64,000 bases of DNA. Source: Diadema setosum (lineage: Eukaryota > Echinodermata > Echinoidea > Diadematoida > Diadematidae). Below are positions 8,419-48,603 of this stretch, in pieces. The notes below the pieces were generated by a model. The model had not been told where the DNA came from. It ran no database searches and saw nothing but the letters and a program-made list of their open reading frames with translations. The stretch spans positions 25,530,699 through 25,594,698 of the forward strand of contig CM067070.1 of the NCBI GenBank assembly GCA_033980235.1, in the 5' to 3' direction. The stretch's first letter is position 1; every line of letters begins with the position of its first letter. A program made the position numbers and the translations under genes.

Positions 8419-8681
8419 AACAATCTTAATTTCAGAACTACAATCTTTTTTTAGGCAACAATTGTTTCAATACTCTCCATGATGATTTCATATCACAATT
8501 CTTATTACATAAATTTTTAAAATAATTTCGTTTCAGATTCTTGTTCAGAACGTTTGCTGCATTTCTCATATTTCTATACTTTTCCCAATAATGCAAACTT
8601 TTATACTTATTATATTTGCGCTTAAAATAATCACGATCACGTGCTATACTCAAATACTCATTCGTTATCCATGGTGACCCT

Positions 8682-9390: not shown

Positions 9391-9669
9391 CTAACATCTA
9401 CCTGAAATGATATGTAGGGTAGATAGATATATACAGTAAAATAAATGTAATACATACAAGAGTTTACTAACCACTATAAGGTCGTATACAAATGCGAACA
9501 GAGGGAACTTGGACAAAATAAATGTATTGAATAATCACAACATTATGAGCTTAACTGGCATATATTTGTATACAAAATTGCGCAGATATTCCTATCAATA
9601 TATTACTTTCTTTTTTTTATGGGCTGTGGAGTATTGTAGAATTTGCTGTTGAAGCAGAAATTCTTGAGT

Positions 9670-10647: not shown

Positions 10648-10980
10648 TTCTCTTGTTGAATTCCACCAACAGTCTTTTGACTTGCATAAACAACGATATG
10701 AAAGAAATATATTATACAATATGCATGTCTATGCAGCAGTGATAAGAATAACATTTATAGTTAAGAAACGATTATGCAGAGGGCCGCCATTATAAGCATT
10801 GCTTGAAAAGATGGCCGGCCCGAGGAAAAAATAAGCACGTACTAGATTCGTAACGATATAAATTCTGCTGCGAAGGTAGCAGGGGAAAATAAACTCTAGT
10901 GTGTGATGGTGGTGGTGGTGAATGTGTGTGCAGGTGCTTGAAGGTGCACAATGGCAGATAGGCTGGAATTTAGAATAATA

Positions 10981-11003
10981 TTTTTTTTTTTTTTTTTTTT
11001 TAC
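10981..11003 (-). repeat. Poly-A tail of LINE C (read as T on the + strand)
   Basis: An uninterrupted T run on the + strand, about 70 bp downstream (minus strand) of the LINE C stop, marks the retrotransposed 3' end. Confidence 0.75.
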
Positions 11004-11070
11004 TGAAAGAGGGGACGATATGCGTTGTTGCTATCGGGAGACCAACATTAATTGTATAATTTGTTTGTTT

Positions 11071-12708: not shown

Positions 12709-13220
12709 AGAAGGACCAACATTAACAAAACAATTGTTAAAAATATTTGCAATTTGATCAGGATTGGTAATAACATTATCGTTGTGAGTAATGCTGTCAG
12801 GACATTCCGTAGGTTTCTTTTTCAGTATTTCATTTTATTTCCGCCAAAGAGCACTTTTATCATCCTTATTAGATTCGAGTTTATTCGAAATATATGATTT
12901 ACGTGAAACTCGAATCAAAGTAGTTAGTTTATTTCTATATATTTTGTACCTTTTCACGTTTTCAGGAGTAGGTTTTCTCAGAGATATTTTTTAAAGACGG
13001 TTTCGAGTGAGAATAGAACATATAAGACCTTGAGTAATCCAGGGTTGCCGAGCTTTTTTCCTTCCATTTCTTTTGGGAGTTAAAGGAATGTGTTTATCAC
13101 AATAATCTAATAATGTTTGTAAAAAAATTTCATAAGAAGAATTAACATCTTGGAGTTCAAAAACTTCATTCCATTGTTCTTCAAATAAATCTTGATTGAA
13201 TGAATCAATATTATGTGGCG

Positions 13221-13632
13221 TTACGTTTCTATATGCATTTTCAAATATTGTTTGGGTTGGTGGCGTATTGGGGTTGTTACAGATTTATTATCAATCATAA
13301 AAATTGGTAGGTGGTCGGATATATCTGAATAAATAATGCCGTTCGTACAGGTTTCCGTTATTACGTTAGACATTATGTTATCTATTAATGTTTTGCTGTG
13401 GGTGGTGTTATTTATTCTGGTGGGCTTATTGATGTGGGGATGCAGTGAATTGGAAAATAATATGTCATGGAAATGGGTGGGTTGTAATAAATCTATATTG
13501 TAATCTCCCATCAAGAAAATGGATTTTCTCTCTCCGAAGATTTTATTAATACAATGGTCGAAGTTATCAAAAAAAAGATTGAATGTCATTTTGTGGAGGA
13601 CGGTAAATGGTACCAACTATAATATTTTTTCC
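13221..13632 (-). pseudogene. LINE C endonuclease, C-terminal part
   Basis: The minus-strand frame contains FLMGDYNIDLL (GDxN-type catalytic motif of EEP nucleases), NKPTRINNTT and SDHLPIFM (the SDH catalytic His motif). It continues directly from the N-terminal half beyond 15107; the two are separated only by the 1470-bp insertion. Confidence 0.85.
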
Positions 13633-13636
13633 TTAT

Positions 13637-15106
13637 CAGTCGCAGCGGACGGGTGCAAGTAACTCACTGTTTTCATTTTGACCTGACCTCGCTTTCCTCT
13701 TGAATGAACACGTTTCGCACGAGAACCGCTAGGAAAGTGTCACAGCAAAACTGCTGTAACTTTACTATTTATTCATATTTTTTGATAATCCAAATGGTTA
13801 TGAAAAGTAAAAACCTCATTTTAACCTGCCATTATGTTTTCTTTTTTATATAACGACGATAAAGTATTTCAAAATGGAGCATAACTTCACTCTCAAAACG
13901 GAAAATAATTGTCAGAAATCGTTGCTAAAATTTCACATTTTGACATCGTGAACAACAAAAAACTTTCAAGTATGTTACTAAGTATGTATTTCTTTCCGGT
14001 ACTCTAAAATATCACATTCGAGAAGTCATGCGTCCGGATATGTCTGAAAATAATCGAAAGTGATGCACTTTCTATCTTCGTTCCGAGCACGAAATTTCAT
14101 AGTCATTCGCACACGGGAAGACAGGGTACAGTCCCACGTACCCACATCTTTGTCGCTCTCACGTCACCTGTACTTCAGTGCAGTACGGCACTGCTGTACT
14201 CTAGTCTTATCGTAACTCGTACCGGGAATTCGTAGTTGTACTGTTACTTACTAGTGCAGTAAAATCTGCGTTAAGTCCGAATAATCCAATGTCATGAATT
14301 TGCAACTGCGTAAATGGTATCATAGCTGATAGGTGTTCAAATTTTTCCTACATTATTTTTAATAGGCCAGTTCTGAAGTGCTTGGTTTTGAGGTGGCGAA
14401 GTCCCCAGCACACTGCTACATTGTTCGACACCGCCTGCGTCCACTCTCATAGCATATAGCATGCATGTGCAGTTTACTAGGCATCCGCAGCAGCCACCTC
14501 GCATCGCACAGTAACAGTACGCTGCATTGCATCGCACAGTAACAGTACGCTGCATTGCATCGACCAATCAGCTCGCTGGATCGAAGCAGCGTGGGAAAGT
14601 CCATTCATTGCGCAAGCGCAAATCAGTTTTTCTTAGAATATGACGTCATTATTCTGGTTTGCTGCTCCTACATTTCTGACAAGATACCTCATTTATTTTC
14701 ACTTGTAACTTCAAAAATAGGTCTTCGGCAAAGCGAACATGGCTACTTTGACGTCCGCACATGTCTTCTGAATATGTATTTCAAGTTTCATGAATATTAA
14801 GTGGTGCGTCCAGATGTGTCTGGAAATAATCGGACGGTAGTTTTCCGACACAGTGAAACATGAAATGTTTAATAACTTAAAAAGTTCTCAATCGTTTCTC
14901 GTGATTTTTCGTATGTGGATAGAAATCATGATTCTGCATTGATACTGAAAGTTCGAGCGATTTTGGTTGATGTATAGGAGAGATATGAGAAGGCGAAATT
15001 TTGGTGAAAATGAGGACGCCCGATTCGCACTGCCTCGATGACGGTTGAAAATTCAAAACGTTTCGTGGGTTTCGGGGGAGTTAATTACAGTCGTCCGCTG
15101 CGACTG
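13637..15106. mobile_element. 1470-bp DNA element in LINE C, TSD TTAT
   Basis: The ends CAGTCGCAGCGGACG (13637) and CGTCCGCTGCGACTG (ending 15106) are perfect 15-bp TIRs. TTAT is duplicated at 13633-13636 and 15107-15110. Excision restores the LINE endonuclease frame (ILND joined to KEK). Inside are a 28-bp tandem duplication near 14506-14561 and a subterminal repeat (GCGTCC-GATGTGTCTG-type near 14028 and 14803). No transposase is seen. The 4-bp TSD does not fix the superfamily. Confidence 0.85.
14506..14561. repeat. 28-bp tandem duplication
   Basis: The unit CATCGCACAGTAACAGTACG plus 8 more bases occurs twice head to tail inside the 1470-bp element. Confidence 0.85.
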
Positions 15107-16495
15107 TTATCATTTAAAATTTCAATAAATAAACTTTCTGATTCCTGAATACACAAATCAGTTCGAATTTTAAATTCAATTTGATTATTGACGTACATGG
15201 CAACCCCACCTCCTTTGCCATGCTTTCTATCATTACGAATAAAATTGTAACTTTCAGTAGCAAATAGGTCCGGGGAATTGGTGTGCAACCATGTCTCGGT
15301 AACTCCTATGACAGAAAATGGGAAATCATTGAGGGAACTTAAAAATAATTCAAATATTTCAAAATTTTTATTTAAACTTCTTAAATTAAAGTGAATTAAA
15401 CTGAAATTAGCACAAATCTAATTTGCGTTATTGAAAGGAAACTGACTGTTAACCCTATTAAGCCCAAGCTATTTTGACCCCTCGCAGGCCCAAGGGGGGG
15501 GGGGCACATTGTGCCCCCTATATAACTTTTTTATTATTTGATGTATCATCGTCATATTTGGCACGTCATACTGACCATACATTTGAATTTTCACAAGGTC
15601 ACCCATGGAGGGCGCTATTAACAAAAATATAAAGAAATACATAGGAAATATGCTAAAAACATGATTTTTCGGTATAATTTCTTTATCCCCATTATATATG
15701 TCTTATTATAGACCAATCATTTTCATATTTGCCACAAATGATAAGCAAGTGGAATTTTATTGTTTGTTATGTTAGAAATTTCTCAAGGTCACCACATGGG
15801 GGCGCTATTCATATCAACATAGTGATACATTATGAGACATGAGATGAAATGTTTGGGATGGGAACATGTATAGTTATGACATTTCATATTTGCATAATAC
15901 TGGAATTTTGAGATTGCAAATTGATAATATGATAAACTAATGATATTAGAGGCATAACTTTGGTGAAGGAATCAAAATAACTCAAAATATAAGGGCAATC
16001 TATAGAAAATATTATTGTTTTCAATTATCTCTATTATATATATATTGTTTTATGCCTTTGTCACATAAAAACAAAGGAATTATAAATAATAAGAAAAACT
16101 TTCCAGGACCATAATTACTTCAAATTTTGCTTCTTCAACAAATTTCAGCAAAGAAACACCCATTTCATACACTGTAATGCTGTTAAATGAAATGGGAACA
16201 GAAAATAGATGCAAAATCTGACTGACATGGTTGTCAGTTTATGGTTGCCATGGCAACCAGCAACATCAAATATAGCTAAATTATATATCAAAATGTTTGC
16301 AATAAGATTTTAGGAAAAGTCAGCAAATTTGGTTGAAATCGGATTAAGGACGAAGGAGTGGCAAACGAAAATCTGGTGGGGGGCACAATGTGCCCCCCCC
16401 CCCTTGGGCTTTATAGGATTAAATTCGTTCATAGTGAAGTACTGGCTTGTATGGTTCACTAGCTGTTGGTCATCTATTCCAATATCAGAATCCAT
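15107..16495 (-). pseudogene. LINE C endonuclease, N-terminal part
   Basis: Minus-strand sequence 16495-16423 begins MDSDIGIDDQQL. After the TTAA element (16418-15453) it continues with FSLIHFNLRSLNKNFE, VIGVTETWLH (catalytic Glu) and KHGKGGGVAMYV, as in EEP endonucleases of CR1/Jockey LINEs. An in-frame TAG near 15418 is a decay mutation. The frame then runs into the 1470-bp insertion at 15106. Confidence 0.8.
15453..16418. mobile_element. 966-bp TTAA element in LINE C with GCACATTGTGCC palindromic subtermini
   Basis: TTAA at 15449-15452 and 16419-16422. TIRs CCCTATTAAGCCCAAG and, reverse-complemented, TCCTATAAAGCCCAAG are followed on both sides by a G-run and GCACATTGTGCCCCC. Excision restores LINE reading (MNEF-NSQ). 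There is no transposase, so it is a non-autonomous piggyBac/Kolobok-type element. Confidence 0.85.
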
Positions 16496-25651: not shown

Positions 25652-25864
25652 AGCGGTCTTGACTGTAAGCCATTCCTGTACAAAGACGGGACTTCAGCCA
25701 GGATGTATCACTTTCGATGACAGCAAGTTAGCGGGTGAGTCTAAGGAGTCCAGATACGTTAGTGGGAAAAGAGCTAGATTGTTGTAATGTATAGTATAGC
25801 GACCATGTACATCGACAAATGTATGCCTGACTTCTGCAGCACCATCCTTTTCTCACCAACAAAC

Positions 25865-25934
25865 ATGTACTTGGTGGATATTAATAGGTGGAGTCACATA
25901 CGATTGATAATGGTCATTATCCACGTTCTGTCTT
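25865..25934 (+). CDS. Exon 1 of the V-set receptor gene: signal peptide
   Basis: ATG at 25865 opens 23 codons plus one base, ending at a strong donor (T|GTGAGTAT at 25935), phase 1. The peptide MYLVDINRWSHIRLIMVIIH then VLS has a basic n-region and a short hydrophobic core. Joining to exon 2 makes a Cys codon (T+GT) and keeps the frame of the Ig domain. The intron (about 5.6 kb) contains the foldback-like element and a TTAA MITE. Signal-peptide exons ending in phase 1 before an Ig-domain exon are the usual arrangement in Ig receptors. The assignment rests on position, phase and hydrophobicity, not on homology. A similar exon is seen at 62894-62972. Confidence 0.5.
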
Positions 25935-27068
25935 GTGAGTATTAATTCTTTAGAATCCCCTTCTTTCATCCAGAAGAGAGAGAGAGAGAGAGAGAAAAAT
26001 CACAAACTTGTTTCAACGGACAGGTTGTCGGGTCATGTGATAGATAAAGAACAAACTTTTGAAAGGGCATGTGACAACCAATTGGGTAATTGGGTAATTA
26101 ACAGATTTCGCTTAGGTAACGTTGATGTGCCTTGAACAAGGCTACTGCTCTTCATGCAGTTCCTAGCAAGTTATCTTTCTTCTCAATCGTGAAGTTTTGA
26201 AAAATGATAATGTGAAGGTTACATGGGTTAGGGTGTCATTTGAGGTGAATAGAGCGGAATATTGTGATTGTTGTGTTGACGGGTGCTGTTCGTTATTCCG
26301 AAGGTTCGTTGATCCGAAACATGCAAATTCCCTATACCTAGAGGTTCGTTAATCCGAAAATGAAAAAGGGTTCATTAATACGAACATTTGTGGCGTTATT
26401 CCGTAGGTTCGTTATTCCGAAGGTTCGTTGATCCGAAAATAAACTAGGGTTCGCTATTCCGAAGGCCCGTTAATCCGAAAATGACCTAGGTTTCGTTATT
26501 CCGAAGGTTCGTTAATCCGAAAATGAAATAATGGTTCGTTATTCCGAAGGTTCGTTAATCCGAAAATAAAATAAGGCTCGATATTTCGAAGGTTCGTTAT
26601 TCCGAAGGTTCGCTGATCCGAAAATGAAATAGGGTTCGTTATTCCGAAGGTTCGTTAATCCGAAGATATGTTAAGGTTCGTTATTCCGAAGGTTTGTTCA
26701 TCCGAAAATATGATAGGGTTTGTTATTCCGAAGGTTCGTTAATCCGAAAATGAAATGCGGTTCGTAATTCTGAAAATGAAATAAACTCACTGTAATGACA
26801 AAATACGTTGTCTTAATAATAAGAATAAAAAAAAACTGCTTGAATATTACGCAATGAAAATTCGATATTGTCTCTGGGAAGGGTGATACACGTGTATATT
26901 CTTGTTGTTTGTTTGTTTTTTAATCCAATGATGGGGCGTGTTTTTGTAAGGTGCTTGCAGTTAGTCCCCTTTTTATTTTGTGTCTGTGTGTATGTGTGGG
27001 GGGAGTCTATCGATCCTCTGGGGTATTAGTGTCTTATAAAGAGATTTATTTCATACAGGCGAGGTATT

Positions 27069-27446
27069 CTAAAGGGATGGTATAGTTTTGGTTGAGATGG
27101 GAGATTCAAATTTTAACTATTTGCAAGATAATTAGAAATCACCTGTGAAATTTAAAAAGGATACAATTCTAAAATAAATTCAAAGTGTATTGTATCAAAA
27201 TCGGTTTAAATGGCCGAGATATCCAAAAAACAAAGTAAAACATTGGGCAAAACAAAAGGTGAGTCCATCGTTTTATTAGGATCCCTTTGTTTTGAATATC
27301 TCAGCCATTTCACAACCAATTTTCGTCAAATAAACTTTGAATTCCTCGTAGAATTACGTGCTCTTTCATATTTCATAAGAAATTTCTCATTATCTCACAA
27401 AAAAGTTGGAAATCTGACGCCCCATCTCATCAGCCCATCCCTTTGA
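27069..27446. mobile_element. TTAA MITE, AAAGGGATGG family (copy 2)
   Basis: Shares AAAGGGATGGTATAGTTTTG, CTCAGCCATTTCACAACCA and CTCTTTCATATTTCATAAGA with the copy at 3153. The ends are degenerate TTAA (CTAA and TTGA). It sits in the centre of the foldback-like element. Confidence 0.75.
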
Positions 27447-28790
27447 TTTTGAATGCCTTCCCTTTATTTTAAGATGGTGACCGCGGTCCCCCCCCCCCTC
27501 AAAAAAAATAATATGTTAAGAGAAAGTGAAATGCATGCAAACTGACAACTCGTTATTTTTTCACTTCTAATAATGGGTATATACAGTAACTTAAATATCC
27601 AAACAGTGCACCTAAATATGTGTCCAAAATCTGGTTTTACACAAAAAGTTGCAGTTTCTTTTGGTAATAAGTAATACAAATATAGTGTTATGGCAAAGGC
27701 TGTCATAATGGAGTGTAAAACCCAATTTACTTAACTTTACGAGAGCTAGAAAATGATACAAAGCACTGGCTTACATTTTGTAAGTTACCATAACGACATG
27801 AATTCCATGAGTTACCATGTCACACAAAAGAGTGGCGAACTGCATTTAACTTCTCACTGAATTCATGCTAAAAATAATTTATTACCGAGTGACTGATCGG
27901 TAGGACAAGTTCGATTACATTCCACTTTTCACAGTGAAGCTTATTAAAAGAGATGTTACATTTGAAATCTGCTTGTTGAGTATCTTTTTATTGCTTATTT
28001 GTATAAAAGCCTTTATTTTTAAGTCCACGCATGTGTGATTTTTTTTTTCCTGCTAGAGACATGTTAGAGTCGCAGAATATGGTAATTATTTCAAATAATG
28101 AATGTATTTTCCTGACAATGATGAAGAAGTGAAGGAGTGGGAGGGGGCGAGCTCATCCCGCTCCGGATGAGAAAATACCTCTACTTTCATTGTTAGCATA
28201 CATCATGTACAATTGAAATTACAAATTACGACGGCATTCTATACGTCGCCGATAATAAGTTTGTATAGAATTGCGTGTGTTTGTGTGTGCCTGTTTATAT
28301 ATGTGTGTGTTCGTATGTGTTTATGTGTCCAAAAAGAGTATGAGTATGCTTGCATCCCCTTTTCAAAGTGAACATGCCTCTCCTGAATTGTTATGATGAT
28401 GATGATGATGAATTTTACACTAACGATAAACGTGATGCTATAAGGCGACGATAATGGGGGTCAGAGCGGATAAGATGGGCATTTAAACAGTAATTTCAAA
28501 GGTTTTATGTAGGCCTACTTGTCCTCAATACACACACTCACACATTATGCGCACACGTATCAACGAACGCATATGACAGTAATTACAACACCATATTTTG
28601 TCACAACAAGAATTTTACTCTATTTTCGGAATTTTAAGAGACTTATTTTATTTTCGGATCAACGAACCTTCATTTTCGGAGTAACGACCCTTATTTCATT
28701 TTCAGATTAACGAACCTTCGGAATAACGAACCTTATTTTATTTTCGGATCAACGAACCTTCGGAATAACGAGCCTTATTTCACTTTCGGT

Positions 28791-29252
28791 TTAAAGGAGA
28801 CCTCCAGATGATTTTCAGATTTTTGCATTTGAACAACTATAAATCAGTTATATTGAGGACAGAGTTTCAGAATTTATGATAACTGGGATGAAGAATAAGA
28901 ATATTTTCAAAATTTAGAACAAATTGCAATGAACAAGGATGATGACATGGCAGAGTCACCATAAGTATGCCTGAGTTGGGGCTCAAGGAAGCAGAACAAA
29001 AGAAGAAGGCATGCATAGATTATACACAGGTGAACTCGCAAGCAAGCGGTATTATAATTAAACTGCTGCATTTGTGAAATATGTGAACCTTCTATGTCAT
29101 CATCCTTGTTCAGTGTAATTTGTTCGAGGTTTTTCAAAGTATTGTTTCTCTGATCAATAACCACAATAAATTCCACAAATCTATACATGGAGTTGTCAAT
29201 TTATGTACTACATGATGTGAAATTATGAAAATCGTCTGGAATGTCCCTTTAA
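28791..29252. mobile_element. TTAA MITE nested in the foldback right arm
   Basis: TTAA at 28791-28794 and 29249-29252. TIRs AGGAGACCTCCAGATGATTT and, reverse-complemented, AGGGACATTCCAGACGATTT. The flanks rejoin into the tandem repeat CGG-TTAA-C-AAACC, so the target was the TTAA inside a repeat unit GGATTAACGAACC. This dates it after the foldback arm. Confidence 0.85.
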
Positions 29253-30924
29253 CAAACCTTCGGAATTACGAAGCCTACTGCATTTTCGGATTAACGAACC
29301 TTATTTCGTTTTCGGATTAACGAACCTTATTTCGTTTTCGGATTAACGAACCTTATTTCGTTTTCGGATTAACGAATCTTCGGAATAACGAAGCTTATTT
29401 CATTTTCGGATTAACGAACCTTCGGAATAACGAACCTTATATCAATTTCGGATTAACGAACCTCCGGAATAACGAAGCTCATTTCATTTTCGGATTGACG
29501 AACCTTCGGAATAACGAATCTTCGGAATAAAGAACCTTCGGAATAAAGAACCTTCGGAATAACGAGCTGTAACCGTGTTGACTGGGTTGTTCCAGGACGA
29601 ATTGGGGGCTTGTCCGGGAAGAACCAATACACACAACCTATATGTTAAAGCCACTGTTTCCATTGAGAGCTATGATTCGAAAATATTCGCGATGTTACTT
29701 TCAATGCATATATTATCATTCTAAAACAATTTTAATAAAACTATTGGTCACATTTCTATACATGTATTTGTAACACTTTGACATTGATTATACTGATTAC
29801 AATTTTACATTAGTTGTTTCTAACCCTAATTAACATTTTAAAACTATTTTGAATTACTAAAGCTTGGTTTTATTTTCATCTGCAAACTGTGAATACTGGC
29901 TTTCTATAATCTATAATCTATAACTTCCAATATTTGTCTGAATACAGCTAGTCAATACGCGCGCTTATATACTATGTGTACCACGTACATAAAAATATGC
30001 CTACACAGCTACATACCAGACTGCTGCTAGACTATCATACAGTTGTAATCTGTTGAGCAGCAGCTTGAGTCTTTTAACTTGCAATCATGATCGACCGTCG
30101 TTGCTTTAAAATTGATTTTACAAGGAGTTTCAAAAAAAATGAAGAGTTTGAATATGTTATTGAGTAGAGTAGATATCCATTGGTCAGATTTTTTTTTTAT
30201 ATTTCTGATTTCAGATTATGTAGACAGTTGTAAGACAGTAATAATGATTCGTGTGTCTTGGTAATAAGTTTTGGTTACATTATCCACAATTTCTCAGTAG
30301 TTTAAATCTTGGTATGCTAAGTGTACACTGATTGTTCTAACACTCTGTTTGCCAAAGGTTTGAGCACACTATGATGGAAATTATTCAATTTATTAGAATT
30401 TCCAATTCGTTTTGTAGACAGTGCTTCTCGTTCCGCCCTGTCGCAATTCGACAGTTTTTGTGGAAATTACTAAAAATCAAATCCACTAGATTTATATCTT
30501 AGCTCTTTTGTTGAAGTAATGAAGGGAACATAATCAAATAAATACCACATGGCATGGCAAGTCTGGCTCATAATTTTTTGTTTTCATTCTCCTTTGAATC
30601 TTGTTTACTAAAATCAGTGATTTTTTTTTTCCATTTCGTCCCGTTGCGCCAGTGAAATTTGTTGTAGCCATGGAAACAAAGCAAATGTATGCCTTGTCTA
30701 TAATGCACTTTCATGCTTTCGTTTAAGCTTGATACATATGTAGGGATATATGACTGCTATCATTTTAAGGTGTTTTTTTTTTTTTGTTAGGAAAAAAAAA
30801 AACCTCTAAGAAAATCCGTCCAGTCGTGGTCCCTTGACTTTTGGATCAAAACCTACCCTGTACTGTAAAGGCCGATGTGCAAAGTCGGAGAAATGCTGTC
30901 AAACTAACGCCCTTCTTTGTTCAC

Positions 30925-31441
30925 TTAACTCTTTATGTGCCACGTTCGCACGTCCGACTCAGTCGACGGCGTGCCAACTTCGCATATTCTGCTCAACAAA
31001 CAAAGCCGCCAAAACCGATCGATAAATCGCTAATCACTGCTAATCCTGCGGCACAATGAAAGCGTTTTTCGTGCTTTTGTTCCTCTCATTACACGGCTTG
31101 CATTCTATGTGGTGATTGACTATCAAGTGGTGTTTCCAACTGGATTTTCTCGTACATTCTAAGTTTCTGTCACGGTTTTATGTGCAAAAGTCACGCCTTT
31201 ACAGTAATGTAGCAACTGGTCATTCGAAAGAGAAATTGAAAATAGATTCGTCATACAATTCATATCGAAACAAAGTTTGGCATTCCTCTTTAACTTTGCC
31301 TACTAGTATGCCCATCTTAACTAAATTTGTAGAGGTTATACAAATTGGAAAAACATAATTCTTTCTCAAAGCATGACTATCTTCGTGTCTCGGAATAACG
31401 TGGCACACAGGGGGTTTCCACCATAGCACATAAAGAGTTAA
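30925..31441. mobile_element. TTAA MITE, CTCTTTATGTGCCACG family (copy 1)
   Basis: TTAA at both ends (30925-30928, 31438-31441). TIRs CTCTTTATGTGC and GCACATAAAGAG. The second copy lies at 35539-36052. The right end is 117 bp upstream of the V-set exon. Confidence 0.85.
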
Positions 31442-31558
31442 ACAGAATCCCCACATGCCATTTAATGTCCAAATGTAGCGCTGTAACTATATTTTATTGC
31501 CATTTATCTGTCTTTCATTTATAACATACCAATGAACCATCTTTTTGCTTGTAAACAG

Positions 31559-31900
31559 GTAATGTGGGAAGATTCCATGGATATGATACCGCGTCTGTAG
31601 AACTGGTGGAAGGACAACAAGGTGTGATACCATGCATCGTGAAGGGGATGGTATCTGTCGTACTCTGGACAAAAGTTGGTGATCCCCCTGAGTTACTGGT
31701 AATCCTCAATCAAAACGGCGATCCAGGTGAGAAGAGTGGAGACGGATATGAGGCCGGCTTGTTCAACATTACAGATGATTTTGCCCTGGTCATCAACGAG
31801 GTCAAACCCGAACACACAGGTCAATATATCTGCCAGATTGCTGACTATTCAAGTGCCTCCACATATGACAGTGCAACGAATGTCACTGTTCAAGAAAGAG
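31559..31900 (+). CDS. Exon 2 of the V-set receptor gene: immunoglobulin V-set domain
   Basis: The 342-bp exon is flanked by acceptor TGTAAACAG (31550-31558) and donor GAAAGAG|GTAGGC, phase 1 at both ends, the classic Ig-exon symmetry. In the assembled protein it gives residues 24-137. Canonical V-set marks are Cys49 (VIPCIV), Trp60 (VVLWTK), the F-strand EHTGQYICQI with Cys115, and a G-strand-like TNVTVQE. The Cys spacing of 66 fits a V-set fold. NIT and NVT are potential N-glycosylation sites. The domain should be extracellular and bind an unknown ligand. Exon size, phase and motifs make this the firmest coding call in the window. Confidence 0.9.
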
Positions 31901-33214
31901 GTAGGCGTATGCAATAAGAACGCTACAACAATAGGGCAGCAATTTGAATCACTTTTTTTCAATCGTTGAAATTTTTTTTTGACAGGTAGTTTATTACACC
32001 TTCAGACGTGATTGAGGAAGTGGAGCTTAATTAGACTGATCATTATTCACTTCAGCTGGTTGCGTCTTCGTACAATGTATGCCTTAGAACATTGACAGTT
32101 ATTTTCTTAAAACTTGATGATTGTGTTAAATTATTGATCTGTTATGTGAATATTTACATTACCATTGAATTGGGGTAAGTAAATAGGATTCTTGACTTAT
32201 AAGATACATGTTTAGCCCAATTATTATAAGAAAACGTATTGAAAGCTGTCATGAGAGGCAACTCTGAAGACATGAACTTTCACCATTAGTATAACTTGTT
32301 AAATCATGGAGAACATCAAATGGAAAAGCTCGTTGCATAAAGTGCTGCGCCTGAAATGACTTGAAATTTGAGTGAGACGAATTGAAATTCGTCTGACAAC
32401 ATATTAAATATTGCGCAAACTAGAAACCTAAAATAACATAGTGCGTCTGAAGAAAGAGAATTTATTTGATTATTTTACAATCGTGTAGCTTTGTACCCAC
32501 CATTATGCAGTATTTTTTCCCGAGAACACTGAATTTTTTTTTGTCATGTATTTTATATATGCAGTACAAAATTATTACAAAGTGATGTTACTAATTTGCA
32601 GAAGCTGATAACTATGCATGTTGCAAAACACAGTAGCGTAGGCGTAAATGTACATGAAATAAATAGTCAGGAACAAAATTATATGTTTGTATGGAGTGCT
32701 TGTCACGAGTTATGATAGTGTCATATTGCCCATGGGTCACACAGTCCACTACTAAGATATACTACAAAAATACAATGCGAGGAAATCATTTGCGGAAAAA
32801 TTCTTTTTTATTGTATATTTCATGAACTTTGTCAGGGCATCATTTCCGTTTTTATCACGCATTCGACGTGACCATGCACCACCTAAGCACCCTAAAAATT
32901 TATGATCACGGACTTTTTCTTCTGTTGGAGAGTTCCAAAGTTGTCGGATTACATTGATGATTTTGATAGGAATAAAATGGAATCAAACTGAATGACAATA
33001 CTTCCTAAAAGTCTGACACTAGAACACCTGTTGGTCATTGTATTCTCTGTGTTTCATTCCGTTGTTACAAACGACACCTTCATTCAGCACAAGTTCTGCA
33101 GAAGATACAGTTTAGAATTCTCTAGCTTCCTCAGTAACGATGTATGGATTACATTATATTTTGAAACATTCGTTTCAAGATATAAAATGTCATATGAGGT
33201 AACTCCACGTGACC

Positions 33215-34085
33215 GACACTAACGAGTCATAGGTGCATGAGTCATACTCGTACTAAACGCAAAAAAAAAAAGGGCTCACGAGACCGAAATTACGAAAACA
33301 ATGACACGAGACCAACAGGATGAACAGCGCCATCTACATGCCAACTACGTATGTATATGTACAGGTTGTGCATCAAAGATAAAAGGGGAAAATAACAGTT
33401 GCCGTGTGCACTTTCGTCAAACTTTCTGGCGCGAGATTGTAAATGATTGAACAAAAAAAAGTAATCATTTGGCAGCTATTTTGTTTATGATAGATGGGCT
33501 TGCATACTTGAAAAATCTTGAGGGTTTTTTTTTTTCCGAAGAGCCCACTTGAATATGATGTTCGTACACAGAATTTATTTTCTGTTCTTATTTTAATTTG
33601 CGGTTTTTTTGTTTGTTTGTTTTTTTTTTGAGGGGGAAGAATAACTAAAAAGTTTGAGGAGTTACACGCAAGCGGGGGTGAAAAGATCTGGCCCTACTTT
33701 TAGAGAATTTTAATACTTATCGTTTTGTATAAACACTCACCCAAACACACACAAATAAAGGTATTTACAATTTCACAGGGTGAGGGAGGGCAACTGGCGC
33801 GGTAACACATTTTAGTAACTCCCATTTCCCATGACTTATTTCTTCTCTATACCACTATCGGGACACCGAAGTACTCTTTGGTTTACGGTGTATGGATGGC
33901 GCTGTTCATCCTGTCGGTCACGTGGGTCCTCTTTGCCTACTGTCGGTCTCGTGAGCCTCTTTTGCTTAGTGTCGAACTCATGGACCGTATAGCTCGTCAG
34001 CCTATTTCACTTGATGCCGACCTCGGGGGCTATAACTTGTGGGCTGTATGACTCGTATAGGCTGTAAAACTCGTGACGCTCACCA
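33215..34085. mobile_element. Imperfect foldback element with TCGTGAG-rich arms
   Basis: The left arm (about 33215-33345) with GGCTCACGAGACCG and ACAGGATGAACAGCGCCATC is inverted in the right arm (about 33895-34085) with GGCGCTGTTCATCCTGTCGG and CGGTCTCGTGAGCC. The arms are extended by further GACTCGTG-type sub-repeats. The interior (about 550 bp) is AT-rich and noncoding. The ends are not sharp and I find no TSD. It lies in intron 2 of the receptor gene. Confidence 0.6.
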
Positions 34086-34673
34086 TAGAATAATGTACAC
34101 ATACATATCTGTGATCATGATTATGATTTAAAGAATGTTAGGCTGTCGCTAACTTGAGTGAGTGTGCTTTGAAAAATAACCTCTTATGCATTTCAAGGAG
34201 AGTGGAAAAGCCTGTCAGAAACCCAGCGAACCCTTCGATCGGTATGCATAGTATCTAGGTTAAAACAAGAGTCGCCATGACAACAGGTAGTTACTAACTA
34301 CTGTTACTTAACACGTCGAAAGACTGAAAAGAACTACAAAGCTACTATCATAGGTTGGAAATCCAAAATGTCTTAAACAGGTGTTTAAACGGGCGAATTA
34401 TACTCCAAATGACCACTGAAGTGCCTTCTAGTAATTGCGATTATCTCATTCTGACGTCATTGAATATTTTTTTTTGTTTTGTTTTCTGGAGTTATATAAG
34501 GTGTTATCGGATGTACAGAGATGTGTTTGGAAACTTCTGACTTCGCTTCGAAGAAAGGTGAAATGACACAACCCGGGTTGGATGCTTATTGAAAAGGGGC
34601 TTTACGTTTGTGATCATATTTTTATTGATACTATTTTCAACGAAAATCGTTGTTCTTGATTCCACATCACCAG

Positions 34674-34823
34674 CTTTCACCGAGGTTCCTTTAACGACCT
34701 CTCCTGCCGAGAGCGCCGGAACAATGGAGATTCTATCAATTGCTGTTCATGGTAGTACTGAATTCCATGATACTACAAAGACAGAGAAACCCAAAGCAGT
34801 CTGCAGCAGGAGCCATCAGTCAT
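34674..34823 (+). CDS. Exon 3 of the V-set receptor gene: Ser/Thr-rich stalk
   Basis: The 150-bp exon runs from acceptor CACATCACCAG (34663-34673) to donor CAT|GTAAGT (34824), phase 1 at both ends and in frame with the Ig and transmembrane exons. It encodes residues 138-187, rich in Thr/Ser/Pro/Glu (FTEVPLTTSPAESAGTMEIL) with one Cys, as expected for an O-glycosylated stalk between an Ig domain and a membrane helix. The T-rich sequence just upstream translates as a hydrophobic stretch, but this is the intron's pyrimidine tract and its apparent start is TTG, not ATG. There is no homology evidence; the call rests on phase and donor strength. Confidence 0.6.
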
Positions 34824-35538
34824 GTAAGTTTTAAGAAAAACGCGGACGGGAGGGGGGGGGGGGGGTGTAGGTGTTTGGATGTCAGGTCAGAACGCTCCCT
34901 CCCCATTTTTTTTTTTTTTTTTAATCAGGTATGAAGCTTAAAATCTAACACGTAATATCGCAGTCTGATCATAACACTGTGTATGACTACTGAGCTATGA
35001 CATTGAAAGAACTAACTTTTTTTTAAACAGCAATGGGTGTAACAAGGAAGCTTCAAAAATGTTATCAGTGAAATTCATTATCCTTTGTACACACACAAAA
35101 AATAACAATACATTGTTCAGACCCCTTGCCGAGGTCCCTTTGCAATGGGATGTATATTCGTGTTACATAGGCCTATTCATACATCTTACAGTTACGTACA
35201 AAAAGGCACTGAAAGTTCAAGAAGCAAAATTCATGCAATCGTTTCCACAACACTCAGATATCGGGGCGCAGATTTGTCATTGTACGATGACTAGGTGGAT
35301 GTTCCGATTTTAATATGCAAAAGGCGTATCCTCTGGGTGTCCAAAATTTTTTGATCCTGCGTGTTTGATCTCCTCCTGAATTAGGTCAAGAGGGTAATGA
35401 AGCATGTTGTATGGACGCCAGGTGAAACTACTCTCTTATAAGGGAGTCTGACACTACGAAACCAGGAGTTTCACAATTTACTGCTGATGATTGCAAATTA
35501 GATTTTCCACTCAGTTATACTGTCACACTCAGATTTGG

Positions 35539-36052
35539 TTAACGCTTTATGTGCCACGTTCGCACGTCCGACTCAGTCGACGGCGTGCCAACTTCGCATA
35601 TTCTGCTCAAACGCATCAACCCGCCCAATCCGATCGATAAATCGCCAACTGCCGCGGTACAATGAAAGCGTTTCTCGCGCTTGCGTTTCTCTTACATATA
35701 GCTTGCATTTCATGTAGTGATTGAGAATCAAGAGGTGTTCTCTACTGGATTTAAGAGTAATTTCTAAGTTTCTGTCACTGTTTTGAGTGCAATAGTCATG
35801 CCTTTGCAGAAATAGCTACTGGTCATGTGAAAGAAAACAATCATATATTTCTCATATACGATAATACATCAAAGCAAAGCTTGGCATTTTCTCTACAACT
35901 TTACTCACTATTTGGTCCAGATCAACAGAAATCTAAAGAAGTTACATAGACTTGAAAAACCGAATAATTTTCTCAAAGCATGAAACCGTTAGTGTCTCAG
36001 AATAATGTTGCACAAAGGGAGTTTTCACCATGGCACATAAAGAGTGTTTTAA
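35539..36052. mobile_element. TTAA MITE, CTCTTTATGTGCCACG family (copy 2)
   Basis: TTAA at both ends. Shares GCTTTATGTGCCACGTTCGC and the ATGAAAGCGTTT segment with the copy at 30925. It lies in intron 3, just before the inverted large repeat. Confidence 0.8.
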
Positions 36053-36092
36053 CGTGTTATGACCGTTCCTGTATACGTTCTTAATCCGTAAT

Positions 36093-39044
36093 TAGGTGAT
36101 CCGAGTATCCTCTCGGATCACCTTCTGTATCTGTACGGATTCTTTATTAGGTGATCCGAGTATTTCTTCTTCTTTGTTTGTTTCTTTATTTCTCCCCAAA
36201 AGTTGTGCAGAGGTTAGCTCAGAAAGTCCTCTGCCTATCAATTTCAAAATTATACCATGTATGCATCATGTCCTAAAGACAACAAATCTAATGCATCATT
36301 GTGATCAGTTGACCGTGACGTCACTATGACGTCATTATATGAAAACACATTCTGAATCATATCTCATTAATGGAATGCAATTTTTCAATGAAATTTACGT
36401 CACATATATTTCAAGTTATGCGCATTCTACTCATATTCTCAAAATTCATCTCTACCCTTAAAACGTGCGCGTACGCGCGCGTTGAAATATTTGTATACTC
36501 CAATCGAGCTCAAAACTTTTTTGCACACGTTTCAGACCATTTGAAGCATTTTTTGAAAAATTGAAAAAATTGGACGGACGCGTACGCGCGCGCACATATG
36601 CGCACGCACAGCTCATATGTCATACAAATTTCCCGTTTTTTCAATCGGATCGGATGTCCGAAATGTCATGGAATATTTATACCAAGTTTCAAGTCAATCC
36701 GAGTCAACATGACGTCATACGGGCCCGTCAAAGTTGAAATTCCGCGCGCGCGTCAATGCCGATATACAGTTAAACTATGCCAAAAAACCGCCAATTTTCA
36801 ATCTGATTTTACTCGTCAGGATGGACCCCCATTTTCTTTACGTATTCTGAGAGCTCATGGGTTGTACATGTCATCTCATGGGTTGCCGACGCTGGTAAAA
36901 TGATTAAAAGGTATCAAATTTCACAATGAAATAAAAAAAACTAGAATCTGAAAATGACGTCATCAAATTTAAAGTTCACTCGAGCGTATCTCCCTTATCC
37001 TTTGCCGATTTACCCCCAGATTTCAGTATGTTGTAGCTTATTAAACGTACTTTCAAAGTTGTATAACAATATTTTAAGGGGATGATGGCATCACCTTGTA
37101 AAAATGGATTGAAAGTAATTTTGTCAAATTTGACCAGTTTACGTGTTATCTCTATGGGAGTGCAGTTTTTCTGGAAATGAAGACTCGACATGACTATCTT
37201 TATGGAGCACTAGCTCACTTACGCTTCGGTAAATTTCTTCTAGATTTTAATATGTTATAGCTGAGACTTGGGGCTATCGTGGATGTGCCCTTCATTTTTT
37301 CGTTCGATGTCGGGATCATGACCAAAAAAATTTGGTTGAAATTAAAGCTTATCTTCGATGTATTGGGATATTTCTTTCTCTCTGCAACTTTCTTTGCAAT
37401 TACTCAAGAAAAACAGCCCCTATCACCCCCATATTTCGTACATGTTTAGTTCATGTCACGAACATTGTTTCATAAAATAACAACTACTTGATCAGACACC
37501 ATCTTGGGTATGTAAATTAGGGTCATAGGTCATAAATGTTTCATTCTGTATCTTGGTGAATACATGTCTTATATTTCCCATATTTTGCACACGCAAAGAC
37601 CATGTTACAAGGATCATTTCACATAATAACCACTTTTTGCTCAGATGCCATCTTGTCTGTGCAAAGTGGGGTCAAATGTCATATGTACTTCTTTGTATAT
37701 CTACGGTATGACGTGTTATCTCTATGGGAGGGAATTTTTCTAGATGTGAAAATTGACATGATTGTCTTTATCGAGAACTAGCTCACTTACCCTTCGGTAA
37801 ATTTTTCTCAGATTTTAATATGTTGTAGCTAAGACTTTGCACTATTGTGTGTAACCCTTCGTTTTTTCACACAATGTCAGGATCACGTTAAAAAAACTTG
37901 GTTGAAATTAAAGCTTATCTTCGAGTATTGAGATATTTCTTCCTTTCTGCAACTTTCTTTGCAATAACTCAAGAAAAACAGCCCCTATCACCCCCATATT
38001 TTGCACATGTTTAGTTCATGTCAAGCACATTATTTCATAAAATAACAACTACTTGATCGGACACCATCTTGGGTATGTAAATTAGGGTCAAAGGTCATAA
38101 ATGTTTCATCCTGTATCTTTGTGAATACATGTCCTATCTTTCCCATATTTTCCACACGCAAAGGCTATCTTACACGCATCATTTCACAAAATAATCACAT
38201 TTTGCTCAGATGCCATCTTGTCTGTGCAAATTGGGGTCAAAGATCATCAGTACTTCTTTCTGTATCTTCGTTATGACGTGTTATCTCTATGGGAGGGAAT
38301 ATTTCTAAATGTGAAAATTGACATGATTGTCTTCATCGAGCACTAGCTCACTTACCCTTCGGTGAATTTCGCCCAGATTTTAATATGTTGTAGCTTAGAC
38401 TTTGCGCTATCGCTTTAAAGCCCTTCGTTTCTTCCATATGGTGTCGGGATCACGTCAAAAAACTTGGTTGAAATTAAAGCTTATCTTCGATGTATTGAGA
38501 TATTTCTTTCTTTCTGCAACTTTCTTTGCAATAACTCAAGAAAAACAGCCCCATCACCCCCATATTTTGCACATGTTTGGTTCATGTCACGTACATTATT
38601 TCATAAAATGACAACTACTTGATCGGACACCATCTTGGGTATGTAAATTAGGGTTAAAGGTCATAAATGTTGCATCCTGTAGCTTGGTGAATACCTGTCC
38701 TATCTTTCCCATATTTTGCACACTTATAGACGATGTCGGAACAATCATTTCACAAAATAACCACTTTTTCCTCAGATGCCATCTTGGGAGTGTAAAGGTG
38801 GGTCAAAGGTCATATGTATTTGTTGCTGTATCTTCGTTATTCAGTGTATACAGAATTTGGTACCAAAGATGGCAGATATGACTCCCTTTTGTAAATGAGA
38901 ATCCAAACATCACACGGCCAATGTCTCTAAACACAGATGAAACTTGTATGGTCATGCCTATTGCGATCAGGACTCGAATCATTGATTAAAAAAAAAAATC
39001 GGATCACCTTAATTTGTCAGTGATGACAAATTACAATCTCTAGT
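36093..39044 (-). repeat. Large noncoding repeat unit, inverted copy
   Basis: The reverse complement of the 18.5-22.9 kb unit. It starts AGGTGATCCGAGTATCCTCT and ends CTGACAAATTACAATCTC-like. The internal ~550-bp sub-repeat (CTTTGCAATAACTCAAGAAA, then CACCCCCATATTTTGCAC) is present three times (about 37390, 37950, 38510) against two in the + oriented units. It fills most of intron 3 of the receptor gene. Confidence 0.85.
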
Positions 39045-39143
39045 TCTTTTTTGGTCTCTCTTTGTATGTAAAATGACGATCACAGAGACTCTTGACCTTG
39101 AGCTGGATCTGCTATAAGGCCATCATTACACACAGGTATCAAC

Positions 39144-39162
39144 ACACACGCACACACACACG

Positions 39163-39238
<76 letters not shown>
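39144..39238. repeat. (CA)n(TA)n microsatellite
   Basis: A CA-rich run merging into a pure TA run, about 120 bp upstream of the transmembrane exon. Confidence 0.9.
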
Positions 39239-39243
<5 letters not shown>

Positions 39244-39358
39244 CGCACACACGCACCTTTCCTGTCTGTCTGTCTGTCTGTTTCTATCATAATGGTATGA
39301 TGCCTGGCAATTGTAAATGTTGACAATATATCCCGTTTTCGTGTCAATTTCTTCTCAG

Positions 39359-39466
39359 ATGGATTGGCAGTACTCATAGGATTCATCAGTGCTGTCGTAT
39401 TCACGTTGCTGTTCTTGGCAGTCTACCGCTTGTTTATTCACAAAAGATGCGATCCCATTGTCCATG
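39359..39466 (+). CDS. Exon 4 of the V-set receptor gene: transmembrane segment
   Basis: The 108-bp exon starts after a good acceptor (CAATTTCTTCTCAG) in phase 1. It encodes residues 188-223. GLAVLIGFISAVVFTLLFLA forms a single uncharged membrane helix, followed by a basic stop-transfer RLFIHKRC, so the N-terminus is outside. The phase that fits the next exon requires the donor G|GCAAGT at 39467, a GC donor rather than GT. A GT four bases further (39471) would give phase 2 and break the frame. The intron is about 1.5 kb. The junction with exon 3 makes Tyr188 (T+AT). Confidence 0.8.
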
Positions 39467-39472
39467 GCAAGT
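39467..39472 (+). promoter_or_regulatory. Predicted GC-type splice donor (GCAAGT)
   Basis: GCAAGT matches the strong extended consensus seen at GC-AG introns. It is the only donor nearby that keeps phase 1 into exon 5. Confidence 0.6.
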
Positions 39473-40734
39473 GTCATTCATTAGGCATTCTATAATATGT
39501 TATTGCAGTTGCTGCAAGTAGTGCAAAGCGCACACCTCGTACACGTAGGTCTATACGAAGGAACATTAGATGAATATTAGTGGTAAAGAATAATTTGGTG
39601 AGTACCAACATTATTTGATAAGGCATAAGAGTTGCAAAATATTAAATGACGACTGTAACTTGTGTTGAGAAATAAGAACAGATATGGTCAAATCTACCAC
39701 AATTTTATCAATCTCTCGATGTTTTGATAATTTGTATGTTGAGCTGCTACTTTCTTTATCCGTTTTTCTGCTTCTCTGTTCTTATTGTATTAAAAATTTC
39801 TCTCCTTCATATGTATGTATATAGTGTACTAGTAACATGATTCCTGTAACCAGAATAGCTGATAAACTAGCAGTCATTGCGTTTATAAGGATGTCCTGAT
39901 CGACTGTGCACTGCTATCAAAATATCATGTTACACTTGAGGACGGAAAAGATTTCGAATATAACATTTTCACAACAAAATAAAACGTGCGAGGCAGTACC
40001 TCAACGGGAATCTACGTAAAGGATAAATTAGGGTATTTTGTGATTTCTGATAGGAAATTAACTTACTGTTGTTTTTTTTTTCTAAATTCACGAGAGTACA
40101 ACTAAGTTAATCAAAATAATGACACTTCATACTGCGACTCCAAATAAAATACAGTAAAGGTCATTTCAGCACGTATAATTGAAGTTACGATTAACAATGT
40201 GAATGCTAGATCTTACATTCCTTTTTGATATTGTTATCATTATCATTATTTCACAACACGGCACAAATCATGAACTCAAGGCAAGACTGGAGACAAACAA
40301 TACGTCGACAAAACTAATGGTGTTTGCGGTGAAGACAACCAACATTGCCAATTTGATAAAGAAGTCAAAATCGGACGTTTGACTGTATTGTCTCAGGTTT
40401 TAACCCGACTCGGCCTGCTTCAAAATAATGGTAAATATCAAGTTTACGGCAATAAAAGCATTACTGAATACGCCAAGTGGGAAAGTGTCACAATTAATTG
40501 TAGAAATTGTTTAGATCGTTAAAACATGTCTCACTTGACAATATTGCAAGGAATATGTATCCCATACATTTGAACATTGCTCAAAAGAAATAATCTTGGT
40601 AAAGCAGTTTATCAACCACCTTAGTAGTTTCCAAATGAGACGAAATGCACGCCACATGAAAAGAAAGATTGCATTTCCAGCGTGCAAGTCCTAAAGATTT
40701 GCGCGTGTCAGTAAAACGGGGGGGGGGGGGGGGT

Positions 40735-40924
40735 AGCATGCCTGTACAGTGACGGGGCATTAAACTGCACATATACTTTAATATGAGACCATCCTGAAGT
40801 AAATAATTTTCACACAACAATAGATATAAAATGTACTCTTAAATGATTCCCACAAGGATTGGAACAATCATCCCCCAGCATTCATTCTGATTCCCACTGA
40901 TCAGTAACTAGCCATCCCCTTTAA
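40735..40924. mobile_element. TTAA MITE, right half only (GGGGATGGCTAGTAACTGATC family)
   Basis: Matches the right half of the full element at 57480-57844 (GACGGGGCATTAA, ATATGAGACC, CCACAAGGATTGGAACAATC, GCCATCCCCTTTAA). The left half is missing. It ends 41 bp before exon 5, so it supplies sequence in the branch-point region of that intron. Confidence 0.8.
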
Positions 40925-40965
40925 AAAAGAAAATTTTCACGCCCTCCCCCATGCTTCTCCTATAG

Positions 40966-41174
40966 GGGAGACATCAAGGAATGGAGGTAAAGCTGGAGAC
41001 AAAACAACTGCAGTCGATGGAAATGGGACTGACTCCTGTCAAGACAGCCAACAGCGTCAGGCTGATGTCGACATCGAAATGATCTCTGAGTATAAAGTAC
41101 AACGATATGCTGATCTTTCCGTTGAAGAAAAGTACATTTCGATACCAGCAACACAGTCTCATGACTGTGCTTGA
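40966..41174 (+). CDS. Exon 5 of the V-set receptor gene: ITAM-like cytoplasmic tail and stop
   Basis: Acceptor CTTCTCCTATAG (40954-40965), then 209 bp in phase 1 to TGA at 41172-41174. It encodes residues 224-292. A polar, Gly/Asp/Gln-rich linker leads to EYKVQRYADLSVEEKYISIP near the C-terminus. Tyr271 (YADL) and Tyr280 (YISI) form two YxxL/I motifs separated by five residues, one short of the canonical ITAM spacing of 6-8. Tyr266 (YKVQ) precedes them. Such motifs recruit SH2 proteins after phosphorylation, or can act as YxxPhi endocytosis signals; YADL also occurs in vertebrate inhibitory receptors such as SIRP-alpha. The signalling sense is inference. AATAAA at 41245-41250 is a possible polyadenylation signal. 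Confidence 0.85.
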
Positions 41175-41230: not shown

Positions 41231-41287
41231 ATCGATTGACCCCGAATAAACAAGCCGTTTTTAGAATGGCTCTCTCTCTCTCTCTCT

Positions 41288-42031: not shown

Positions 42032-42106
42032 GTCTACGTGAACGGCGAGTGGTTGAAAACGTTGGCGTTCCATGCCAAAAATCCGGGTTCGAATCCCGGC
42101 GGAGAC
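42032..42106 (+). tRNA. tRNA-like sequence, anticodon TCC (Gly-type); possible SINE head
   Basis: Acceptor GTCTACG/CGGAGAC pairs at six of seven positions. The anticodon stem TTGGC/GCCAA is perfect around loop GTTCCAT (anticodon TCC). The T arm CCGGG-TTCGAAT-CCCGG is perfect and gives a consensus B box. The D arm is poor. No intron. A partial copy 335 bp upstream and flanking TA tracts favour a tRNA-derived repeat over a working gene. Confidence 0.5.
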
Positions 42107-48501: not shown

Positions 48502-48603
48502 AGGGTATCCCGGTGGTCTAGTGGTTATGGCGCTGGTCTAGTAATCCGGAGGTCGTGGGTTCGAATCCCGCTTGGGCTGCCTGTGATTTTTTTTTTTTTT
48601 TTC
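48502..48603 (+). ncRNA. tRNA-derived SINE head with pol III A and B boxes and T-run terminator
   Basis: A box TGGTCTAGTGG (48514-48524) and B box GGTTCGAATCC (48558-48568) match the pol III consensus and spacing. The anticodon loop CTAGTAA would give AGT (Thr-type). The acceptor and D stems do not pair, so it is not a functional tRNA. A run of about 17 T (48586-48602) follows, flanked by GGCTGCCTGTGA and TCACAGCAGCC, which form a hairpin around it. Confidence 0.6.

What the first reader, a model, noticed from the sequence alone, without database searches (positions are those of the whole stretch)
25865..41174. Five-exon V-set receptor with an ITAM-like tail in an invertebrate genome
Seen: five exons with matching phase-1 junctions whose lengths sum to an intact 292-codon frame, coding for signal peptide, V-set domain (Cys49, Trp60, Cys115), Thr/Ser stalk, membrane helix and a tail with YADL-x5-YISI. 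Known: vertebrate leukocyte receptors combine V-set domains with ITAM or ITIM tails. Inference: this is a candidate invertebrate immune-type or recognition receptor. The five-residue spacer is shorter than the canonical ITAM, so it may be a variant SH2 platform or a pair of YxxPhi sorting signals.
Basis: partly seen in the sequence, partly recalled or inferred. Interest (0 to 1): 0.85.

Follow-up and report, generated by a model that had tools for sequence, protein, structure and literature searches.

The report
Sea urchin V-set receptor gene
This is a probable five-exon gene, most likely from a relative of the long-spined sea urchin Diadema, for a small receptor with one immunoglobulin domain whose tail carries two tyrosine signals that resemble, but do not match, the ITAM motif that switches on vertebrate immune cells.

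Summary
Five exons joined at phase-1 junctions give an intact 292-codon frame: hydrophobic leader, V-set domain (Pfam E 7.2e-9), stalk, membrane helix, and a tail with YADL-x5-YISI. Exon 2 folds as a V-set domain. Leader, stalk and tail exons rest mainly on splice signals.

Protein searches found five relatives: four Diadema antillarum (sea urchin) proteins and one protein on an unnamed 666-base contig. They share the V-set domain; the three with a membrane segment have other tails, without YxxPhi motifs, and the tail itself found no relative.

The tail is not an ITAM: spacer 5 instead of 6-8, no acidic residue at -3 of the first tyrosine (PMC7026191, PMC7582382). Such pairs (x5-8) occur in 0.23% of shuffled tails, a post hoc test.

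Best reading: an echinoid surface recognition receptor working like CEACAM3, by SH2 docking; the main rival is YxxPhi endocytosis. Ig receptors with ITAM or ITIM tails are already published in oyster, Hydractinia and Botryllus. New member of a known kind; no expression evidence; its own assembly could not be searched.

The parts
25865..25934 (+). Exon 1: start codon and hydrophobic leader (MYLVDINRWSHIRLIMVIIHVLS...), putative signal peptide
   Evidence: the only donor site found between 14,001 and 31,558 that follows an ATG with a hydrophobic core in the right phase under the thresholds (one donor, four in-frame ATGs; leaders split over two exons and the first 14 kb were not scanned). No homology support.
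31559..31900 (+). Exon 2: V-set domain (Cys49, Trp60, Cys115; EHTGQYIC)
   Evidence: Pfam V-set E 7.2e-9; homologues P0001-P0005; AlphaFold model mean pLDDT 75.5; PDB V domains
34674..34823 (+). Exon 3: Thr/Ser-rich stalk
   Evidence: AG acceptor, CAT|GTAAGT donor, phase 1. Shuffle test for similarity to Diadema stalks not significant.
39359..39466 (+). Exon 4: transmembrane helix, phase 1-1 so skippable in frame; GC donor
   Evidence: Hydropathy 2.78 over 19 residues; similar to the membrane segment of Diadema P0003 (1 of 2000 shuffles as good) but not of P0001 or P0005; skipping keeps the frame
40966..41174 (+). Exon 5: cytoplasmic tail with YADL-x5-YISI and stop codon
   Evidence: no homologue of residues 186-292 at E 10 or better among 53 candidates
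41106..41144 (+). YADLSVEEKYISI, the paired tyrosine motif (Tyr271 to Ile283)
41245..41250 (+). AATAAA, candidate polyadenylation signal starting 71 bases after the stop codon
   Evidence: Read directly; not tested against chance
25825..25839 (+). Possible 3' splice site (gcctgacttctgcag) that would make ATG 25865 the first start codon
   Evidence: Read directly; not tested

Best explanation
The gene encodes a type I membrane receptor of a V-set family so far seen only in or near diadematoid sea urchins. One V-set domain on a flexible, Thr/Ser-rich stalk binds a surface ligand (microbial or self; unknown). Ligand-driven clustering would let Src-family kinases phosphorylate Tyr271 and Tyr280, and the two phosphotyrosines, 9 residues apart, would recruit SH2 proteins, either one at a time (hemITAM-like, as proposed for CEACAM3) or through a tandem-SH2 Syk-type kinase, to drive uptake or activation of coelomocytes. 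SHOWN: gene structure as an open model, V-set domain, homology to Diadema proteins, a hydrophobic membrane segment, the tyrosine pair. INFERRED: expression, surface location, phosphorylation, partners, cell type and outcome.
Against: No transcript was seen. The ITAM consensus is not met. None of the 3 Diadema relatives with a membrane segment (P0001, whose segment is only weakly hydrophobic, P0003, P0005) has a YxxPhi motif after it; these are single isoforms, and their other isoforms were not returned. The shuffle test is post hoc. No charged residue in the helix, so no sign of pairing with a signalling adaptor. Loops are not clearly hypervariable: differing positions in loops and strands are 6 of 46 and 7 of 56 against P0002, 17 of 46 and 15 of 56 against P0001, 23 of 44 and 28 of 56 against P0003, 28 of 44 and 23 of 57 against P0005. 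Syk homologues are not universal: PMC5978004 finds vertebrate-like Syk only in invertebrates that have CARD-CC/Bcl10 (abstract and passages). For CEACAM3 itself Syk inhibition did not reduce uptake of bacteria (PMC7026191).
Confidence: 0.48

Rival explanations
1. An adhesion or scavenger-type V-set surface protein whose YADL and YISI are YxxPhi sorting signals bound unphosphorylated by AP-2; it recycles by endocytosis and does not signal through SH2 proteins.
For: Both motifs fit YxxPhi, and a third, YRLF at Tyr210, sits at the membrane edge; ITAM spacing and acidic context not met; structural neighbours include adhesion V domains (nectins, Dpr/DIP, ZIG-8/RIG-5).
Against: A pair at this distance is rare in shuffled tails (post hoc), and Tyr280 has acidic residues at -2 and -3, which Src and Syk kinases favour (recalled).
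Confidence: 0.3
2. The V-set exon is real, but the true transcript differs: another leader, further exons, or a different tail, so that the tyrosine pair is not part of the main product.
For: Exon 1, the stalk and exon 5 rest on splice signals; weak exon 1 donor, GC donor of exon 4; stalk similarity not significant; tail unmatched in the protein search; Diadema relatives have unlike tails.
Against: Five exons of one phase fit without a stop, each with an AG acceptor where needed, and an AATAAA follows the stop; the membrane exon resembles P0003.
Confidence: 0.17
3. Mainly a soluble or decoy V-set protein made by skipping the membrane exon.
For: Exon 4 is 108 bases, phase 1-1, and skipping keeps the frame. 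Diadema isoforms P0004 and P0005 differ by one inserted stretch of 35 residues that holds the membrane segment.
Against: Shown only in the annotation of a relative; the membrane exon is intact here. More likely a second product than the main one.
Confidence: 0.05

Closest known systems
Uncharacterized V-set proteins of Diadema antillarum (P0001, P0003, P0004/P0005)
   Same: Homologous V-set domain with the shared stretch SG.GY.AG..(N/D)I...F.L.I..V; Ser/Thr-rich stalk and, in three of the four, a membrane segment; that of P0003 is similar in sequence.
   Different: Different tails without YxxPhi motifs; P0003 has two V-set domains; P0004 lacks the membrane segment.
CEACAM3 / CEACAM4 (human granulocyte receptors)
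   Same: [quoted passage not shown] the imperfect motif of CEACAM3 still drives phagocytosis (PMC7026191, passages).
   Different: No sequence homology beyond the V-set fold was shown; CEACAM3 departs from the consensus by its last residue (methionine), not by spacing; it arose within primates (same passages).
Hydractinia Alr family and Botryllus FcoR
   Same: Invertebrate Ig-superfamily receptors; V-set domains in Alr (PMC11999971, passage); ITAM/ITIM (Hydractinia) and ITIM/hemITAM (Botryllus) motifs (PMC12065747, passages).
   Different: None of the 4 named hits comes from these groups; they belong to allorecognition loci; no polymorphism data exist here.
Oyster CgIgIT2
   Same: Invertebrate Ig receptor with a membrane helix and an ITAM (PMC11999971, passage).
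   Different: Five Ig domains, and a motif that the review calls classic.
Vertebrate 2B4/TREM/NITR-type leukocyte receptors
   Different: No orthology evidence; the window protein itself has no Receptor_2B4 match at E 1 or better; no ITIM, no charged helix residue.

Membership tests
Immunoglobulin superfamily, V-set | Profile match above the curated cutoff, with core Cys/Trp/Cys | tested here: met
   PF07686 36.2 bits against 26; Cys49, Trp60, Cys115
Immunoglobulin superfamily, V-set | V-type beta sandwich | tested here: met
   [not shown]
Diadema-type V-set family | Sequence homology across the V-set domain | tested here: met
   E 3.6e-38 with the single sequence, P0001 only; P0003, P0004, P0005 at E 3.6e-30 or better with a profile of the query and P0001
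ITAM receptor | YxxL/I-x6-8-YxxL/I | tested here: not met
   Spacer is 5; consensus from PMC7582382 and PMC7026191
ITAM receptor | Acidic residue at -3 of the first tyrosine | tested here: not met
   Val268 at -3 of Tyr271
ITAM receptor | Doubly phosphorylated motif binds tandem SH2 of Syk/ZAP-70 | not testable with these tools
   Needs peptides and protein
ITIM receptor | (S/I/V/L/T)xYxx(L/V/I) (recalled) | tested here: not met
   0 matches in residues 212-292
AP-2 cargo (YxxPhi) | YxxPhi in the tail (recalled) | tested here: met
   YADL and YISI; binding untested
Rearranging antigen receptor (VJ type) | Recombination signal sequences with 12 or 23 spacer (consensus recalled) | tested here: not met
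   0 matches with up to 3 mismatches in this window, where about 1 each is expected by chance; the rest of the genome was not searched
CEACAM family | Sequence homology | tested here: inconclusive
   None of the 4 named hits is a vertebrate protein, but the search needs shared 5-residue words and limits length
Hydractinia Alr family | Sequence homology | tested here: inconclusive
   None of the 4 named hits is a cnidarian protein; same limits

The most novel reading that the evidence does not exclude
Diadematoid sea urchins possess their own multigene family of small V-set receptors in which a conserved recognition domain is combined with exchangeable tails (paired-tyrosine, tyrosine-poor, soluble), an independent echinoid parallel to CEACAM and Alr receptors, and this member signals through a shortened, x5 ITAM.
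Probability: 0.22. Interest if true: 0.7.

Novelty: new member of a known kind. Interest (0 to 1): 0.42.

Why it matters
If the five exons are expressed together in coelomocytes, an echinoid would have a direct-signalling V-set receptor, adding to the cases (cnidarian, oyster, tunicate) where Ig receptors and tyrosine motifs meet outside vertebrates, and giving a testable example of a shortened ITAM spacer. Diadema has suffered mass mortalities (recalled), so recognition receptors of its family are of practical interest, but nothing here links the gene to disease.

Tried and rejected
Canonical ITAM: rejected, spacer 5 and no acidic residue at -3. ITIM: no match. Adaptor-pairing receptor: no charged residue in residues 189-209. 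V(D)J-type element: no recombination signal in the window. Further V-set exons in the window: none seen; a profile built from alignment A2 (which contains the query, so its own exons score by construction) gave the five model exons at E 1.9e-5 or better and nothing else under E 1 among stop-to-stop pieces of 20 residues or more in six frames. Tail homologues: 53 candidates, none at E 10 or better. Paralogues in the window's own assembly: the genome search did not complete in 11 identical tries, so this stays untested. Structure lists: dominated by TCR and antibody chains; a family missing from them is not excluded. The PDB sequence search gave antibody light chains and TCR chains first (best E 5.7e-07, 60 of 1465 rows shown), which says V-set and no more.

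Papers: ten searches; their listings, some of them capped (20 of 56, 20 of 35, 20 of 97, 15 of 28), showed no title on this family. Passages were seen in PMC12065747, PMC11999971, PMC11593052, PMC5978004, PMC3995055 (nothing usable on spacing), PMC10253181 (and its section 18 in full), PMC7026191 and PMC7582382; no paper was read whole. Huene 2022 and Rodriguez-Valbuena 2022 and 2024 were seen only as cited there.
Full report
What is in the sequence. Joining 25865-25934, 31559-31900, 34674-34823, 39359-39466 and 40966-41174 on the + strand gives 879 bases: 292 codons and TGA. Each of the four acceptors ends in AG; donors are GT except exon 4, which is ATG|GCAAGT, a GC donor with an otherwise strong context; all four junctions are phase 1. 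An AATAAA starts 71 bases after the stop (read).

How firm each exon is. Exon 2 is firm: Pfam V-set E 7.2e-9, 36.2 bits against a cutoff of 26, and a Diadema antillarum homologue at E 3.6e-38. Exon 4 is supported by similarity of its membrane segment to Diadema P0003 (1 of 2000 shuffles as good), though not to P0001 (640 of 2000) or P0005 (1459 of 2000). The stalk is not supported by the same test (421, 1507 and 1947 of 2000), and the tail at best weakly (1515, 1482 and 42 of 2000; nine comparisons in all). Exon 1 holds the only donor found under my thresholds between 14,001 and 31,558, but that donor is weak and four in-frame ATGs share it. No transcript could be consulted.

Who the relatives are. 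A search of 5.8 billion proteins returned one relative with the single sequence (695 candidates) and five with a two-sequence profile (6020 candidates): four Diadema antillarum proteins, on contigs of three different lengths, and P0002, a 137-residue protein on an unnamed 666-base ENA contig, 83% identical over 37% of the query. Diadema antillarum is a diadematoid echinoid. The host is thus probably a relative of Diadema; this is inference, as the window is unlabelled and its assembly could not be searched. No other named species appeared, which suggests a restricted or fast-changing family, within the limits of a search that needs shared five-residue words and similar length.

What the family looks like. 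The V-set domain is shared, with a stretch SG.GY.AG..(N/D)I...F.L.I..V. P0003 has two V-set domains and a short tail; P0005 has one and a long tail; P0004 equals P0005 without one stretch of 35 residues that holds the membrane segment; P0001 has a weak membrane segment and a short C-terminal part. In none of P0001, P0003 and P0005 does the part after the membrane segment carry a YxxPhi motif; P0001, P0004 and P0005 are named isoforms X2, X3 and X2, and the other isoforms were not returned, so tails of another kind may exist. In the window gene exon 4 is likewise a membrane exon, phase 1-1, and skipping it keeps the frame, so a soluble form is possible but not shown. Differences between the V-sets do not gather clearly in loops: loops against strands 6 of 46 and 7 of 56 (P0002), 17 of 46 and 15 of 56 (P0001), 23 of 44 and 28 of 56 (P0003), but 28 of 44 and 23 of 57 (P0005).

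Structure. The AlphaFold2 model of exon 2 (six sequences, mean pLDDT 75.5, pTM 0.71) has eight strands. Model residues 51-70 have a mean pLDDT of only 55-56; they are residues 75-94 of the protein and include much of the most conserved stretch. Foldseek and VIA-align place the model among V domains: TCR chains, nectin-4, CD226, PD-1, 2B4, Dpr/DIP and ZIG-8. This shows a V-set fold, not a function; immune and adhesion proteins are mixed in the list.

The tail. It holds three tyrosines, 266, 271 and 280; the pair is YADL-SVEEK-YISI. The published ITAM consensus has a 6-8 residue spacer and, in the fuller form, an acidic residue three before the first tyrosine (PMC7026191 and PMC7582382, passages). 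Neither is met. YxxL/I-x5-8-YxxL/I arises in 0.2265% of 200,000 shuffled tails, the x6-8 form in 0.1735%, x5-12 in 0.4365%, and Yxx(L/I/V)-x5-12 in 1.1635%; because the motif was chosen after seeing it, these figures overstate its rarity. Both halves are also YxxPhi sorting signals.

How it most likely works. The nearest analogue is CEACAM3: an IgV receptor with one helix and an imperfect ITAM, in which phospho-Y230 is the hub for SH2 docking (PMC7026191, passages). A Syk transcript is reported from sea star eggs (PMC11593052) and a single Syk-like gene plus HTK16/SHARK from invertebrates (PMC10253181), although PMC5978004 finds vertebrate-like Syk only in invertebrates with CARD-CC/Bcl10. A reader for phosphorylated tails therefore plausibly exists in an urchin, but was not looked for in this genome. 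I give 0.48 to a clustering receptor with SH2 docking, 0.30 to an endocytic or adhesive protein with sorting signals, 0.17 to a different transcript, 0.05 to a mainly soluble protein.

Novelty. Ig receptors with ITAM or ITIM tails have been described in oyster (PMC11999971), Hydractinia and Botryllus (PMC12065747). This gene is a new member of that kind, in an echinoid. The listings of my paper searches showed no report of it, but some lists were capped and the library holds only openly licensed papers.

Noticed in passing
window 30925-31438 and 35539-36045: Two copies of a roughly 510-base element, 4.6 kb apart, on either side of exons 2 and 3. It begins CTTTATGTGC and ends GCACATAAAG, so it looks like a small non-autonomous DNA transposon with inverted ends.
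   Followed up: partly
window 26394-26793 and 28627-29565: Large inverted pair of 42-base tandem repeats (GGTTCGTTATTCCGAAGGTTCGTTAATCCGAAAAT...) inside intron 1; listed arms 82-88% complementary.
   Followed up: partly
window 37187-38790: Three tandem copies of a roughly 566-base unit inside intron 3.
   Followed up: no
window 6655-15417, - strand: Remnants of LINE-type retrotransposons: reverse transcriptase pieces at 6655-7632 and 11875-12423 (Pfam RVT_1, above cutoff), a sub-cutoff one at 11531-11956, and a sub-cutoff endonuclease match at 15088-15417.
   Followed up: partly
window 48507-48579 and 42049-42100: tRNA matches to Rfam; the second covers only model positions 7-64 and may be a tRNA-derived SINE.
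   Followed up: no
P0001 (Diadema antillarum): This relative passes the Pfam cutoff for Natural killer cell receptor 2B4 (PF11465, 23.7 against 21 bits); the window protein does not match it, P0004 and P0005 only below cutoff.
   Followed up: no
P0002 (ENA, 666-base contig): Seems to read past the exon 2 donor into sequence (NKNAT) that the start of intron 2 here also encodes in another frame, so it is probably genomic DNA of a close paralogue or sister species; yet 13 of 102 compared V-set residues differ (compared by eye).
   Followed up: partly
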